From a virus, in the IMG/VR virus record IMGVR_UViG_3300009785_000085, positions 1 through 24,693 of that record: a DNA stretch of 24,693 nt, one strand, 5' to 3'. Under the pieces are notes generated by a model. That model was not told where the DNA came from. It worked only from the letters and a program-made list of their open reading frames with translations, and did no database searches. A program made the position numbers and the translations under genes. Of the stretch, positions 1 through 8,328 are shown piece by piece (positions within the stretch are counted from its first letter, which is position 1; each line of letters starts with the position of its first letter).

Positions 1-788
1 AATATTCTACTAGATGCTTCTGCCATTTCAGCGTTTTTCTTTAGCTCTATATTAGCCTTAGCAGTTTCTAGTGCATTTGATATGCTTACTTTTTTCATGC
101 CTTCAACTACCTGTTCTCCGATAGCTCCAACCTCTGTAACTGCTTCTGCAAAATTTGTAACAACACTTTTACCCGCAGATATAGCTTCGTTTGCGGTTTC
201 GGCTAAACTTTGTTTTGTTTCTAATATTGACTCATTAAGTCTTTTAACTGTTTCAGGATCGCCATCTCCAAACATACCCTCTTCCCATGCAAGTTGAGCA
301 GATAAAAGAGCAAGTTTAATTCCATCAAAAGCTAATTTTAATGGTGTTATTGAAATAGTTAAAAGCCCTTTTATAACTTTTCCTAATGCATCAAAATTTT
401 CTGATGACGATGATACCGCTTTATATACGTCTGTAAATACATTAACAATTTGATTAAATACAATTTGAGCAGTTTCAAAAATGGTGTTTAAACCATTCAT
501 TACTTCTTGATTTTCTTGTATTGCAGAAGAAACAAACTCGAACGCTTTCTGTAATAAGAATACAACTCCAGAAGCCTTAGCAAGATTACTCATTGAGATG
601 CCTACTTTTTTAACTCCCTTTGCGCTATCCTCTGCAGTTTTTTCTACATCTTTAAGCTGTTTCTCTGTCGCTTCGTTAGAGTCCTTAACGTCCTTCCGAA
701 CGTCTTTAAGCTCCTTTTGAAGTTTTTCAATACTCTTTAAGGCGTCTTTGTATTGTAACTCAAATTCTACTTCTATTTTTTCTGCCAT
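1..788 (-). CDS. Tail tape measure protein, N-terminal part (cut by window edge)
   Basis: Translating the minus strand from the ATG at 788 gives 262 codons without a stop, running off the left edge, so the gene is partial at its 3' end. The protein starts MAEKIEVEFELQYKDALKSI. Residues 5-60 are rich in heptad-like Lys/Glu/Leu, a likely coiled coil. Two hydrophobic stretches follow around residues 68-85 and 128-150, then more Ala/Glu-rich helix. This composition, together with the position as the last visible gene after a tail assembly chaperone and tail proteins, fits a tape measure protein, which sets tail length and is expelled during DNA injection. No catalytic domain is visible in the part present. 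The start overlaps the preceding 48-residue ORF by 16 nt. The function call rests on composition and synteny, not on a sequence signature. Confidence 0.72.
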   Translation of the reverse strand, partial: MAEKIEVEFELQYKDALKSIEKLQKELKDVRKDVKDSNEATEKQLKDVEKTAEDSAKGVKKVGISMSNLAKASGVVFLLQKAFEFVSSAIQENQEVMNGLNTIFETAQIVFNQIVNVFTDVYKAVSSSSENFDALGKVIKGLLTISITPLKLAFDGIKLALLSAQLAWEEGMFGDGDPETVKRLNESILETKQSLAETANEAISAGKSVVTNFAEAVTEVGAIGEQVVEGMKKVSISNALETAKANIELKKNAEMAEASSRI

Positions 789-4360: not shown

Positions 4361-4900
4361 TTATTTCTTTTGTCCCAGTATTATTGCGTTCTCTATGTCT
4401 AAAGCGAATGAAGAGGCAAGATCAGGGTTTAATTTTTTTAATCCTTTATAAAATGGCTTTGTAAAAAAGTAATTCGGCTTTAAACCTTGAGCGAATATGC
4501 TCCTTTGTAAAGCGAAGCCCATACTTTTATTGTTCCCTTTTGCGTATTGACCTTTGGCGTTTCTAAATCTTATGTTTTTAGACTTTGCCCAGTCAGCTAA
4601 TATCTGCATTGGAGGCATTTTTCTTTTGTAACTAAATTTACTTCTCGGTGCTTTCTGAACACCTCCCTTAATTAGAGACGGGTTTGCGCCCTTAACTCCC
4701 TCATCGACATATATTCCGTAGTCCTCCATTAGAAAGTTCAGTAGAAATAGGTCTGGATCGGTTTCTAGGGTATATTTAACTGAATCGTATAATGCGCCAG
4801 ATCCCTTTCCATCTTTAGACAGATTAGATTTTGATTGTTGCACTACATATTTTGCGTATTTATTTAAAACATCTTCTATATTTGAAAAGTCCATTAGCAA
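4361..4900 (-). CDS. HK97 gp10-like neck/tail completion protein
   Basis: A 179-residue protein, start MLMDFSNIEDVLNKYAKYVV. Features seen: an N-terminal helix, then QSKSNLSKDGKGSGALYDSV near residues 22-41 (the pattern of a residue-rich loop followed by L-x-x-S-I/V common in HK97 gp10-family proteins), a Lys/Arg-rich middle (KAPRSKFSYKRKMPP) and a C-terminal helix ending IENAIILGQKK. The HK97 gp10 family acts at the head-tail junction or tail end. It overlaps the preceding gene by 7 nt and is followed by a tail protein, which agrees with that role. The alternative initiator Met3 (MDFSN) would be equally compatible with the sequence. Confidence 0.65.
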   Translation of the reverse strand: MLMDFSNIEDVLNKYAKYVVQQSKSNLSKDGKGSGALYDSVKYTLETDPDLFLLNFLMEDYGIYVDEGVKGANPSLIKGGVQKAPRSKFSYKRKMPPMQILADWAKSKNIRFRNAKGQYAKGNNKSMGFALQRSIFAQGLKPNYFFTKPFYKGLKKLNPDLASSFALDIENAIILGQKK

Positions 4901-5364
4901 ATGTATATGTCGTTATAAATCATGATGGTCATACTAGCAGACCAACCTGCTAACTGATTCTCGAATCGATCATAAAAAGGTGTCAAGGTAGGATTACCGT
5001 CTAGCTGATACATATCAGTATAAAGAGTGCCCATTCTAAGTCGTTGCGTTAATCTGTTTAGTACTGCTAGTTGCGTATTTAGAATATCTTGCACATCGTT
5101 ATTGCCTTTAAATCTGTCAACAGTAAATTCCTTAGCCTGATCTACAATATCACAAGCTAATACTGTAATGTTAAACCTCAGCACTTGCTCTTCGTCTATT
5201 ACGCTGTCAATGATAATATGCCCTAAAGGAAAAATATCCTGTTTGTTTAGGTTGACGTCTGTTAGATCTCCAGTCGTTACAGTATTAATGTTTACGTCTT
5301 GAAGTAGCTCTGTCTTTATTGTTTCCGTTAATTGGTAGAAACCTCTTACACCTTGATTTGCCAT
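4894..5364 (-). CDS. Putative tail terminator/minor tail protein
   Basis: A 156-residue protein starting MANQGVRGFYQLTETIKTEL. The ATG shares its A with the TAA of the frameshifted tail assembly chaperone ORF (TAATG), so translation is probably coupled. The pattern of an N-terminal helix, a segment with DIFPLGHIII in the middle and a C-terminal beta-rich part ending WSASMTIMIYNDIYIC is one I recall from Bacteroidota phages, in the place where tail terminator or tail completion proteins occur. There is no enzyme motif. The role is inferred from synteny (tail assembly chaperone on one side and HK97 gp10-like protein on the other). Confidence 0.55.
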   Translation of the reverse strand: MANQGVRGFYQLTETIKTELLQDVNINTVTTGDLTDVNLNKQDIFPLGHIIIDSVIDEEQVLRFNITVLACDIVDQAKEFTVDRFKGNNDVQDILNTQLAVLNRLTQRLRMGTLYTDMYQLDGNPTLTPFYDRFENQLAGWSASMTIMIYNDIYIC

Positions 5365-6103
5365 TATTTAAAGTTCTTTTTTATTTGTTTTGCTTCTAGC
5401 TCTTGTTTTTCTTTTGTGTATTCTAAAGCATATAAGCATCCATGTAGGTTTAATTTAGTGATATGTTCAAGTCTTGTAATATCTCCTTGAGCGAGTCCTG
5501 AGAAAAGGCTTTGATACCATCCCCATTTTTTTGAAAAATTTGATGATGCATCGAGCTGTCCCTCCTGTTCTCTTCCAAATAATCCATCATAACTTTCGAT
5601 AAGTCGATCCCTAAATTGTGTAAAAAAAAAACTGCACCTAAAACGACATCAATACTAATATCAGTTAACTTGTCTTTTGTTTCAAGGTCGTATTCTTTAA
5701 TCAAATACTTGTCGCCTATCTTTTCGGATATTGGTCTGAATAAGACATTCATAGCCACTAGCATGTTGTCCCAGTCTCCGATATTTGTATCAAGATCGAT
5801 ATACTCTCCTAATGACATATCGTCTAGCTGAGGGATTAATCCGTATTCAATACCTCCTGTTTTAAAGGTTCTTATTAGAGTCGGCTTTACATCAAACATT
5901 TTGTTTAGTATTCCAACAATCCTGTCTGCATCAAAGACCTTTAAAAGCCTTACTGTCTTCGCATCTAAATTGCAAAAGATCTCGATCATTTTACATTGCA
6001 GAAAATAGTTGTCAGTATTATTTTTCTGAATTTTCAGATATTTTTGATACTGCTTTAGCGTGATTTCGCCTAAGTTGTTTGGTATTAGTAATGAACCTTT
6101 CAT
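5364..6103 (-). CDS. Tail assembly chaperone, -1 frameshift product (about 246 aa)
   Basis: The first 161 residues are shared with the 217-residue form. After TTA at 5623-5621 a -1 slip continues with ACA CAA TTT and gives 85 more residues, including KKWGWYQSLFSGLAQGD, then LEHITKLNLHGCLYAL and ending KQIKKNFK, with the stop TAA at 5366-5364. The -1 frame is closed upstream by TGA at 5651-5649 and has no ATG between that stop and its end, so a frameshift is the simplest way to express it. Its stop overlaps the ATG of the next gene as TAATG, typical of coupled neighbours here. The WGWYQS..LAQGD pattern is, as I recall, conserved in proteins at this locus. The arrangement matches the lambda gpG-gpGT and equivalent tail chaperone pairs. 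Confidence 0.75.
5450..6103 (-). CDS. Tail assembly chaperone, unshifted product (217 aa)
   Basis: A 217-residue protein starting MKGSLLIPNNLGEITLKQYQ. It has the features of a tail assembly chaperone in this phage type: an N-terminal domain with LGEITLKQYQKYLKIQ, a middle segment GEYIDLDTNIGDWDNM then LFRPI around residues 98-125, and a helical C-terminus. Two-frame tail chaperones (lambda gpG/gpGT) help the tape measure and tube proteins to assemble and are not in the mature virion. The gene follows an intrinsic terminator and begins the tail operon. At Leu161 it contains a run of ten T in codons GTT TTT TTT TTA, a slippery site, and a second frame then stays open to 5364. The last 56 residues of this unshifted form overlap that second frame. 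Confidence 0.68.
   Translation of the reverse strand: MKGSLLIPNNLGEITLKQYQKYLKIQKNNTDNYFLQCKMIEIFCNLDAKTVRLLKVFDADRIVGILNKMFDVKPTLIRTFKTGGIEYGLIPQLDDMSLGEYIDLDTNIGDWDNMLVAMNVLFRPISEKIGDKYLIKEYDLETKDKLTDISIDVVLGAVFFLHNLGIDLSKVMMDYLEENRRDSSMHHQIFQKNGDGIKAFSQDSLKEILQDLNISLN
5621..5630 (-). promoter_or_regulatory. Programmed -1 ribosomal frameshift site in tail assembly chaperone
   Basis: On the minus strand ten T are followed by A, read in the zero frame as GTT TTT TTT TTA CAC. Both T TTT TTT (5630-5624) and T TTT TTA (5627-5621) have the X XXY YYZ form of canonical -1 slippery heptamers. A weak stem, ACTT at 5604-5601 with AAGT at 5595-5592, lies about 16 nt downstream. No strong pseudoknot was recognised by eye. 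The product frame is open for 85 codons and ends at the start codon of the next gene. Confidence 0.75.
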
Positions 6104-6209: not shown

Positions 6210-6335
6210 TTACATCATGTCTGCTTCGAAACAACCGTTACTGCAGTACGTTCTATCTTCATGCATCGGCTTCTCGCAATGTGAGCAAGTGTATTCTGGC
6301 TGCTCGTGTGGATTTAAATAGTCGTCCCAACTCAT
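6210..6335 (-). CDS. Small zinc-ribbon protein (41 aa)
   Basis: ORF of 41 residues from the ATG at 6335 to TAA at 6212-6210. The sequence has CSHC at residues 17-20 and C31-S-N-G-C35, a C-x2-C...C-x3-C arrangement that could bind one zinc ion, with His19 and His25 nearby. The ATG overlaps the TGA of the upstream 41-residue ORF (ATGA). Small zinc-finger proteins of this sort are common in phages, and their roles range from DNA binding to protein contacts. No specific function can be given. A terminator follows 32 nt after its stop, so it is the last gene of its operon. Confidence 0.65.
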   Translation of the reverse strand: MSWDDYLNPHEQPEYTCSHCEKPMHEDRTYCSNGCFEADMM

Positions 6336-6457
6336 ATCTTAAATAATTTAGCGATTTCTAATATTTCTTTTTTGTCTTCTGTTTGATTATATGCCTCTAG
6401 TTGTAAAAGCCTATATAAATAATTACTGTCTGCTTCTGTAATTTTAACTGTTCTCAT
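6332..6457 (-). CDS. Small helical protein (41 aa)
   Basis: ORF from the ATG at 6457 to TGA at 6334-6332, encoding MRTVKITEADSNYLYRLLQL and 21 more residues. It is probably two helices, mixed charge, with no Cys and no membrane segment. Both ends overlap neighbours by ATGA: its ATG with the TGA of the upstream ORF, its TGA with the ATG of the zinc-ribbon ORF. These overlaps and its position in an otherwise empty stretch support that it is translated. Family not recognised. Confidence 0.55.
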   Translation of the reverse strand: MRTVKITEADSNYLYRLLQLEAYNQTEDKKEILEIAKLFKI

Positions 6458-7164: not shown

Positions 7165-8328
7165 TTAATGTATTGTATATGAGCCGAATCTAGGCTTGGA
7201 TAATATAGAGTAAGTTGCATAGCGGCATGGATCGATTATATGATTGTGATCGTCAATAGGTGTATTAAGTAATGCACCAGTTTTATCTTCACGCCACTTA
7301 TAGTTTCTAAACTCCGATATGGCATTAGACGATGAGGCTAGTATGTTAATCTTGTACCTCTTCAGTAAATCTATTCCTGCATTAATCGAGTCTTTACCTT
7401 TTAGACTTGGAAATATATTATGCCCCATACGTCTTAACTCGCTGATCAGTCTAGGCTCTGCGCTATCTGCGTATATAGGTTTACTGCTTAGCTCTTCACT
7501 TAGCAAGAACTTATGTATGTCAGTAGTCGTCATAGCGGTTCGATATAGATGCTCTTTTACATAAAGGTTTATGTCTTTAGTATATACTGAAACAAGCGTA
7601 CTAGGATCGTTCGTGTAGCCAAAATCCATTCCGTATGCGACAAGCTCTGCGTCTTCAGGTATATGAGTAACCTCAGCATATCGAAATACAGTACTCCGAC
7701 TTGCAGCTCTTTCGCCTAAGCCGTATATCTGCCAATACTGCTCGTCTGTATCTCTAAGTAGCTCGATCTCTTTTTTAATGGAATCTTCAACAAATGGATT
7801 ATCTAAGTACGTTGTTTTAAAAAAGTCGCAGTCCTCTCTAGGCAATACCTTGTCATAGATCCAATGATATTCGTCTGACGGATTAAAGTCAATTACAATC
7901 CTTTCCTGAGTCCTAAATATTAGCTGCTGCCAGTCCTCAAAGTATAACTCGTTGGCTTCATTAATAAAAAGCAGATCCCTTTTACGTCCTCTAATCTTTT
8001 GCGGTTGATCAAGCGAAATGAACTCCACAAGATTACCAAACAGATAATACTCAGAATTAGACTTATTATGGAACTTCTCGCTGTAAAGGTTATGACCTTC
8101 TAGTATGCTCATAAAGTCTCTTAGAACGGTCGCACGTAAGCTAGGGAATGACTTACGGCATACGGTTATGACCTTATTATTATTATTAGTACAATACTCG
8201 AATATGATCCACAGTATTATATTATAGGTTTTGCCAGACCTTGTTCCGCCTTGTTCTACAATAATCTTCTTATCTGAAACCAATAAGTGATCATAAACAA
8301 TGTTAGTCTTTATCTTTAGTTGATCCAA
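7165..8328 (-). CDS. terL: Terminase large subunit
   Basis: A 387-residue ATPase-nuclease that cuts and pumps phage DNA into the prohead. The ATPase domain shows Walker A GGTRSGKT at residues 27-34 and Walker B LLFINEAN at 119-126, with the Glu of the NEAN motif as likely catalytic carboxylate. The C-terminal RNase H-like nuclease domain shows GMDFGYTNDP (Asp235), YADSAEP (Asp288) and the region DDHNHIIDPCRYA (Asp360, Asp366). The total length fits PBSX/Terminase_3-type subunits. The start overlaps the terminase small subunit gene by 26 nt. A promoter follows its stop. No portal gene follows, which is unusual. The identification is firm. Confidence 0.95.
   Translation of the reverse strand: MDQLKIKTNIVYDHLLVSDKKIIVEQGGTRSGKTYNIILWIIFEYCTNNNNKVITVCRKSFPSLRATVLRDFMSILEGHNLYSEKFHNKSNSEYYLFGNLVEFISLDQPQKIRGRKRDLLFINEANELYFEDWQQLIFRTQERIVIDFNPSDEYHWIYDKVLPREDCDFFKTTYLDNPFVEDSIKKEIELLRDTDEQYWQIYGLGERAASRSTVFRYAEVTHIPEDAELVAYGMDFGYTNDPSTLVSVYTKDINLYVKEHLYRTAMTTTDIHKFLLSEELSSKPIYADSAEPRLISELRRMGHNIFPSLKGKDSINAGIDLLKRYKINILASSSNAISEFRNYKWREDKTGALLNTPIDDHNHIIDPCRYATYSILSKPRFGSYTIH

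What the first reader, a model, noticed from the sequence alone, without database searches (positions are those of the whole stretch)
5364..6103. Programmed -1 frameshift in the tail assembly chaperone gene
The zero frame ends at 5450, but a run of ten T with two canonical heptamers at 5630-5621 leads into an 85-codon -1 frame with no ATG, closed upstream at 5651 and ending with TAATG on the next gene. Both frames contain plausible conserved protein (zero frame ...NGDGI...; -1 frame WGWYQS..LAQGD). This is a dual-coding region of about 170 nt and explains the otherwise empty stretch 5365-5449.
Basis: seen in the sequence. Interest (0 to 1): 0.74.

Follow-up and report, generated by a model that had tools for sequence, protein, structure and literature searches.

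The report
Frame-switching tail gene in marine phage
A phage of flavobacteria-like hosts appears to make two versions of one tail-building protein by slipping at a run of ten Ts inside the gene; the arrangement is kept in over 150 distinct relatives, but whether the ribosome or the RNA polymerase does the slipping is still open.

Summary
On the minus strand a 217-codon frame (6103-5450) contains T10 (5631-5622); a -1 frame, closed just upstream (5651-5649) and without ATG/GTG/TTG, adds 85 codons and ends TAATG on the next gene. Relatives show it is real and programmed. In 155 distinct homologues (viral contigs, cultured Nonlabens phage P12024S, Bacteroidota genomes) the site is always T9 or T10 with T_TTT_TTT in register. 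Of the 149 long enough to judge, 148 keep the frames out of phase; one Dysgonomonas copy is naturally fused. Both frames are constrained through the overlap, so sequencing error and pseudogene are excluded. By architecture, neighbourhood and fold it works like a lambda G/GT tail assembly chaperone, although no TAC family model matches significantly and four genes separate it from the tape-measure gene. The slipping agent is unresolved: at least 9 T everywhere, no RNA structure, no Shine-Dalgarno, avoidance of long T/A runs elsewhere and left/right compensation lean to RNA polymerase slippage (about 55%) over -1 ribosomal frameshifting (about 40%). Part of the zero-frame conservation (NGDGI) is the out-of-frame shadow of the -1 motif KWGWY.

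The parts
5450..6103 (-). Zero-frame gene, 217 aa (25.0 kDa): shared N-terminal domain (residues 1-161) plus a 56-residue zero-frame tail
   Evidence: conserved in 133 related loci
5622..5631 (-). T10 slippery tract (GTT TTT TTT TTA), with in-register heptamers T_TTT_TTT (5630-5624) and T_TTT_TTA (5627-5621)
   Evidence: T9 or T10 in all 155 distinct homologues
5364..5621 (-). -1 frame extension, 85 residues after the shift (TQFRDRL...KKWGWYQS...KKNFK), stop TAA 5366-5364; long product 246 aa (28.5 kDa)
5450..5621 (-). Dual-coding overlap of about 172 nt; synonymous variation reduced in both frames
5649..5651 (-). Stop codon that closes the -1 frame just upstream of the tract, so the switch must happen at or after it
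4894..5364 (-). Next tail-block gene, 156 aa, start overlaps the extension's stop (TAATG); PHROG 30964, unknown function
3..788 (-). Start of a tape-measure-like gene (cut by the window end), four genes downstream
   Evidence: weak hits in the window; the syntenic gene in L246 hits a PHROG tape-measure family at 6e-8
7165..8328 (-). Terminase large subunit, upstream landmark of the block

Best explanation
One tail-assembly gene with two products made by a programmed frame switch at the T10 tract. Standard decoding gives a 217-aa protein (161 shared residues plus a 56-residue zero-frame tail). A fraction of decoding events enters the -1 frame at the tract and gives a 246-aa protein whose last 85 residues are a conserved, mostly helical domain (KWGWY...LAQGDI...). 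Shown here: the overlap, conservation of the tract, of both frames and of the out-of-phase arrangement, and one natural fusion of the two segments. Inferred: that both proteins are made and that they act like lambda gpG/gpGT, the shared part binding the tape-measure protein and the extension recruiting tail-tube subunits. Also inferred: the agent. I lean to RNA polymerase slippage (one extra U, or two fewer; about 55%) over simultaneous -1 slippage of two tRNAs at U_UUU_UUU / U_UUU_UUA (about 40%). The confidence below is for the two-product frame switch in a tail-chaperone-like gene, whichever agent slips.
For: T9/T10 with T_TTT_TTT in register in 155 of 155 distinct homologues, three registers. 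Of these, 148 are out of phase, 1 fused, 6 too short to judge. Both frames open and constrained. Cultured phage P12024S has the same arrangement, annotated as two genes. Natural in-frame fusion in Dysgonomonas (L221). Tail-block position upstream of a tape-measure gene. The fused protein folds with good confidence and matches phage proteins at full length, two annotated tail assembly chaperones among the weaker hits (E 0.01 and 0.057). For polymerase slippage: tract never below 9; T8 3 observed vs 20.9 expected, T>=9 1 vs 9.7, A>=9 5 vs 28.2 in other coding sequence; no downstream structure, SD-like sequence in 4/48; left/right compensation 14/14 vs 54/141.
Against: No protein or RNA data. No TAC family model matches significantly (PF10109 only at E 0.095). 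Four genes separate it from the tape measure. The compensation signal rests on four origins and is not significant once relatedness is allowed for. Amino-acid needs of the two frames could also keep the tract long. A canonical heptamer is always present, as a ribosomal mechanism requires.
Confidence: 0.83

Rival explanations
1. Conventional -1 programmed ribosomal frameshifting at T_TTT_TTT or T_TTT_TTA, as in lambda G/GT. Same two products; differs from polymerase slippage only in the agent.
For: In-register heptamer in every homologue. Known tail chaperones shift on the ribosome, and a ratio as low as 1 in 30 suffices in lambda (PMC5009743), so strong stimulators may not be needed.
Against: Tract never shorter than 9 although 7 T would keep the heptamer; no alternative heptamer in 155 homologues; no structure or SD stimulator, and Bacteroidetes mRNAs lack SD sequences (PMC6847099); left/right compensation of tract length.
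Confidence: 0.4
2. RNA polymerase slippage on the T tract (one U added or two lost), with ordinary translation of the edited mRNA.
For: 9 is the length at which slippage is efficient and selected against in many bacteria (PMC1088944, PMC5009743). Long T/A runs are avoided elsewhere in these phages. Tract >=9 in all homologues with compensation.
Against: Indirect only; long runs could be avoided because of replication slippage; polymerase of the host or a phage-specific effect not known; no tail chaperone proven to work this way was found in the papers searched.
Confidence: 0.55
3. Sequencing or assembly error: the true tract has 11 (or 8) T and the gene is one uninterrupted frame.
For: Homopolymers are error-prone; one Dysgonomonas copy is fused by one extra T.
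Against: An independent contig 99.9% identical over 5 kb has T10; every viral homologue from many samples, and a cultured phage, is out of phase; zero-frame openness and stop position are conserved beyond the tract.
Confidence: 0.01
4. Two separately started genes, or an unused zero-frame tail with the extension translated by re-initiation.
For: P12024S was annotated with a separate short gene.
Against: The window's -1 frame has no ATG/GTG/TTG at all; conservation of the extension starts at the tract; in most relatives the only ATG/TTG candidates lie about 60 codons inside the domain.
Confidence: 0.02
5. DNA-level phase variation: the tract changes length in replication and switches the long form on and off.
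For: Dysgonomonas sp. 520 has one T9 (out of phase) and one T10 (fused) copy.
Against: No fused copy among the viral loci although a phase-variable site should show both states; 198 near-identical pairs differ in tract length only through L080, whose T12 keeps the phase.
Confidence: 0.02

Closest known systems
Lambda G/GT-type tail assembly chaperone with programmed -1 frameshift (review PMC5009743)
   Same: Short and C-terminally extended product from one gene, overlap in -1 frame, in the tail block upstream of the tape measure.
   Different: No detectable sequence-family match; four genes lie between it and the tape measure; a T9-T10 tract replaces the short heptamer; no stimulators found.
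Nonlabens phage P12024S gp38/gp39 (NC_018271, PHROG 32199)
   Same: Homologue in a cultured flavobacterial phage: T9 tract, -1 extension with KWSWY, same downstream gene families.
   Different: Deposited as two hypothetical genes; its zero frame ends about 27 codons after the tract instead of 57.
9A/9T transcriptional-slippage genes, e.g. Thermus dnaX, IS elements, Shigella mxiE/spa13 (PMC1088944, PMC5009743)
   Same: Homopolymer of at least 9 A/T kept at the frame junction, avoided elsewhere.
   Different: Not tail chaperones; slippage shown there by experiment, here only inferred.
Pfam Phage_TAC_7 (PF10109)
   Same: Weak similarity in two relatives.
   Different: E 0.095, below any threshold; not a member by this test.

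Membership tests
Tail assembly chaperone gene with programmed frameshift (lambda G/GT type) | 3' extension in an overlapping frame, without its own start | tested here: met
Tail assembly chaperone gene with programmed frameshift (lambda G/GT type) | Conserved slippery site in register, out-of-phase arrangement kept in relatives | tested here: met
Tail assembly chaperone gene with programmed frameshift (lambda G/GT type) | Location between major tail protein and tape-measure gene, next to the latter | tested here: inconclusive
   Upstream of the tape-measure gene in the same block but four genes away; the major tail protein could not be identified
Tail assembly chaperone gene with programmed frameshift (lambda G/GT type) | Significant similarity to a known TAC family | tested here: inconclusive
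   Sequence: none significant. Fold: two annotated TACs at E 0.01 and 0.057. No solved structure matches
Tail assembly chaperone gene with programmed frameshift (lambda G/GT type) | Both products made; needed for tail assembly; absent from the virion | not testable with these tools
   Needs proteomics and genetics
-1 programmed ribosomal frameshift site | X_XXY_YYZ heptamer in the zero frame | tested here: met
-1 programmed ribosomal frameshift site | Stimulator: downstream RNA structure or upstream SD-like sequence (common, not universal) | tested here: not met
   mean folding z about +0.15 to +0.18; SD-like in 4/48
Transcriptional slippage gene (9A/9T type) | A/T homopolymer of at least 9 at the frame junction, kept in relatives | tested here: met
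Transcriptional slippage gene (9A/9T type) | Such runs selected against elsewhere in coding sequence | tested here: met
Transcriptional slippage gene (9A/9T type) | mRNAs with heterogeneous tract length | not testable with these tools
   Needs RNA sequencing of infected cells

The most novel reading that the evidence does not exclude
Across Bacteroidota phages the tail-chaperone frame switch is driven by RNA polymerase slippage on an invariant T9-T10 tract and not by ribosomal frameshifting: in a phylum whose mRNAs lack Shine-Dalgarno signals, phages fixed a transcriptional solution to a step that lambda solves on the ribosome.
Probability: 0.45. Interest if true: 0.62.

Novelty: new member of a known kind. 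Interest (0 to 1): 0.42.

Why it matters
It identifies the frame-switched, probably tail-chaperone, gene of a large and mostly unannotated group of marine and gut Bacteroidota phages, where databases list it as hypothetical or split it in two. It gives annotators a simple rule: a T9/T10 tract followed by a -1 frame with KWGWY. It also makes a clean question testable: do phages of hosts without Shine-Dalgarno signals use polymerase slippage where lambda uses the ribosome?

Tried and rejected
(1) Downstream stimulatory RNA structure: mean folding z +0.18 (60 nt) and +0.15 (100 nt) over 48 sequences. (2) Upstream Shine-Dalgarno stimulator: 4/48, and synonymous sites nearly unconstrained to within 5 codons of the tract. 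(3) Sequencing error, separate genes and phase variation: see rivals. (4) Zero-frame tail as a folded domain: residues 182-217 of the predicted short product have pLDDT below 50 and P12024S lacks most of it. (6) PDB searches by profile and by fold found nothing. (7) Flavobacterium phage 6H gp10, a weak fold relative, has only a T6 run and does not show the same -1 arrangement; not counted as a homologue. (8) Literature searches for frameshifted tail chaperones in Bacteroidetes phages found nothing in the held library. (9) The 48/48 figure was not used as evidence, because those genes were picked there by having T>=9; the 132/133 was used instead.

Full report
OBSERVATION. The minus-strand gene reads ...GGT GCA GTT TTT TTT TTA CAC AAT TTA...; the T10 tract is 5631-5622. 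The zero frame ends at 5450 after 217 codons. The -1 frame is closed at 5651-5649, has no ATG, GTG or TTG, and continues for 85 residues after the shift to a TAA that overlaps the next ATG (TAATG). Predicted products are 217 aa (25.0 kDa) and 246 aa (28.5 kDa).

CONSERVATION. The window is a 24.7-kb IMG/VR viral fragment. A scan with the zero-frame protein found 255 related viral stretches (80 kept, each aligned over residues 1-217), and a scan with the extension found 53. Of 133 loci with a zero-frame match, 132 have the T tract in that frame; in the other (L133) the match is broken upstream of the tract. Wider scans with extension profiles and with Bacteroidota genomes brought the set to 155 distinct sites. 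Every one has exactly 9 or 10 T (a near-duplicate, L080, has 12), in three registers, each containing T_TTT_TTT in zero-frame phase. Of the 155, 148 are out of phase, one is fused and six are too short to judge. Matching genomes and MAGs are Flavobacteriaceae, Winogradskyella, Prevotella and Dysgonomonas. The cultured Nonlabens phage P12024S carries the same arrangement, deposited as two hypothetical genes.

BOTH FRAMES. Across 48 non-redundant sequences, synonymous variation is about 0.94 of expectation up to five codons before the tract and 0.29 at the tract. In the overlap it is 0.18-0.84 for the -1 frame and 0.06-0.48 for the zero frame in all five-codon bins but one; right after the zero-frame stop the -1 frame returns to 0.88-0.94. 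Keeping only one protein and randomising synonymous codons, the other frame stays open in under 1% of trials on average. The zero-frame tail is nevertheless partly a shadow of the other frame: NGDGI is the out-of-frame reading of KWGWY, the tail is predicted with pLDDT below 50 beyond residue 181, and P12024S ends 27 codons after the tract. The clearest zero-frame constraint is in the first ten or so codons after the tract, which extend the long helix in which the tract lies.

NATURAL FUSION. Dysgonomonas sp. 520 has two copies. L220 has T9 and is out of phase. L221 has T10, which makes the N-terminal domain and the extension one uninterrupted 251-aa protein. This supports the view that the two segments belong to one polypeptide. 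Whether that T10 is real or a sequencing error cannot be told here.

FUNCTION. The fused protein is predicted with good confidence apart from a linker (mean pLDDT 81.7). It matches many uncharacterised phage proteins at full length, and two proteins annotated as tail assembly chaperones at E 0.01 and 0.057. Pfam, NCBIfam and PHROGs give no named family; PF10109 (Phage_TAC_7) appears only at E 0.095 in two members. Gene order in longer relatives is terminase (seen in L246 and L248) - this gene - about 156 aa - about 170 aa - 309-596 aa - about 700-800 aa - tape measure - XkdF-type protease - ... - portal. A C-terminal extension made by frame switching, in a tail block ahead of the tape measure, is the signature of lambda-type tail chaperones (PMC5009743). 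I judge this role likely but not shown; non-adjacency to the tape measure is unusual.

AGENT OF SLIPPAGE. For the ribosome: a canonical heptamer is always present, and in lambda a 30:1 ratio suffices. For the polymerase: the tract is never shorter than 9 although 7 would keep the heptamer; 9 is the length at which bacterial polymerase slippage becomes efficient and selected against (PMC1088944, PMC5009743); long T and A runs are strongly avoided elsewhere in these phages; no RNA structure or SD-like stimulator was found, and Bacteroidetes mRNAs lack SD sequences (PMC6847099). When the codon before the heptamer does not supply a T on the left, the codon after it always supplies two on the right (14/14 against 54/141, nominal p 4e-6). 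L251 (GGT TTT TTT TTT) differs in this way from its close relatives L331 and L332 (GTT TTT TTT TAT). That trait arose only four times on the tree (two on well-supported branches), so the test is not significant after allowing for relatedness. I therefore lean to polymerase slippage at only about 55%.

VERDICT. A real, conserved, programmed frame switch, most probably in a tail assembly chaperone.

Noticed in passing
L244:10747-11442 (G138, single 4.3-Mb contig): A Bacteroidales homologue with its T9 tract lies between non-phage-looking genes (a 1001-aa ORF that looks SusC-like by eye downstream): an orphan tail-chaperone-like gene outside any visible prophage.
   Followed up: no
L219:3615-12207, L220 and L221: Prevotella and Dysgonomonas copies sit in a compact block (recombinase-like gene in L219, this gene, about 190 aa, 156 aa, 500-650 aa, and a 910-aa gene in L219), similar to the phage tail order; could be an integrated element or tail-like particle.
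   Followed up: no
L245:10048-10351 (Flavobacterium phage 6H): Unannotated gap of about 300 nt after gp10, a weak fold relative; zero frame stops right after a T_TTT_TTC heptamer and a plausible tail-chaperone extension lies downstream in another frame. Arrangement not worked out.
   Followed up: partly
L246:4316-17486: In this phage group the tail block (from this gene to the tape measure) precedes the head block (protease, likely capsid, portal), the reverse of the usual order.
   Followed up: partly
window 6210-6338 (-): Small open frame of 42 codons with a CxxC...C-rich (zinc-ribbon-like) peptide, CSHCEKPMHEDRTYCSNGC, upstream of the gene.
   Followed up: no
window and related viral loci, other ORFs: Runs of T8 or longer and A9 or longer are depleted about 5- to 10-fold in coding sequence relative to codon-shuffled expectation, with little depletion below that length.
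   Followed up: yes
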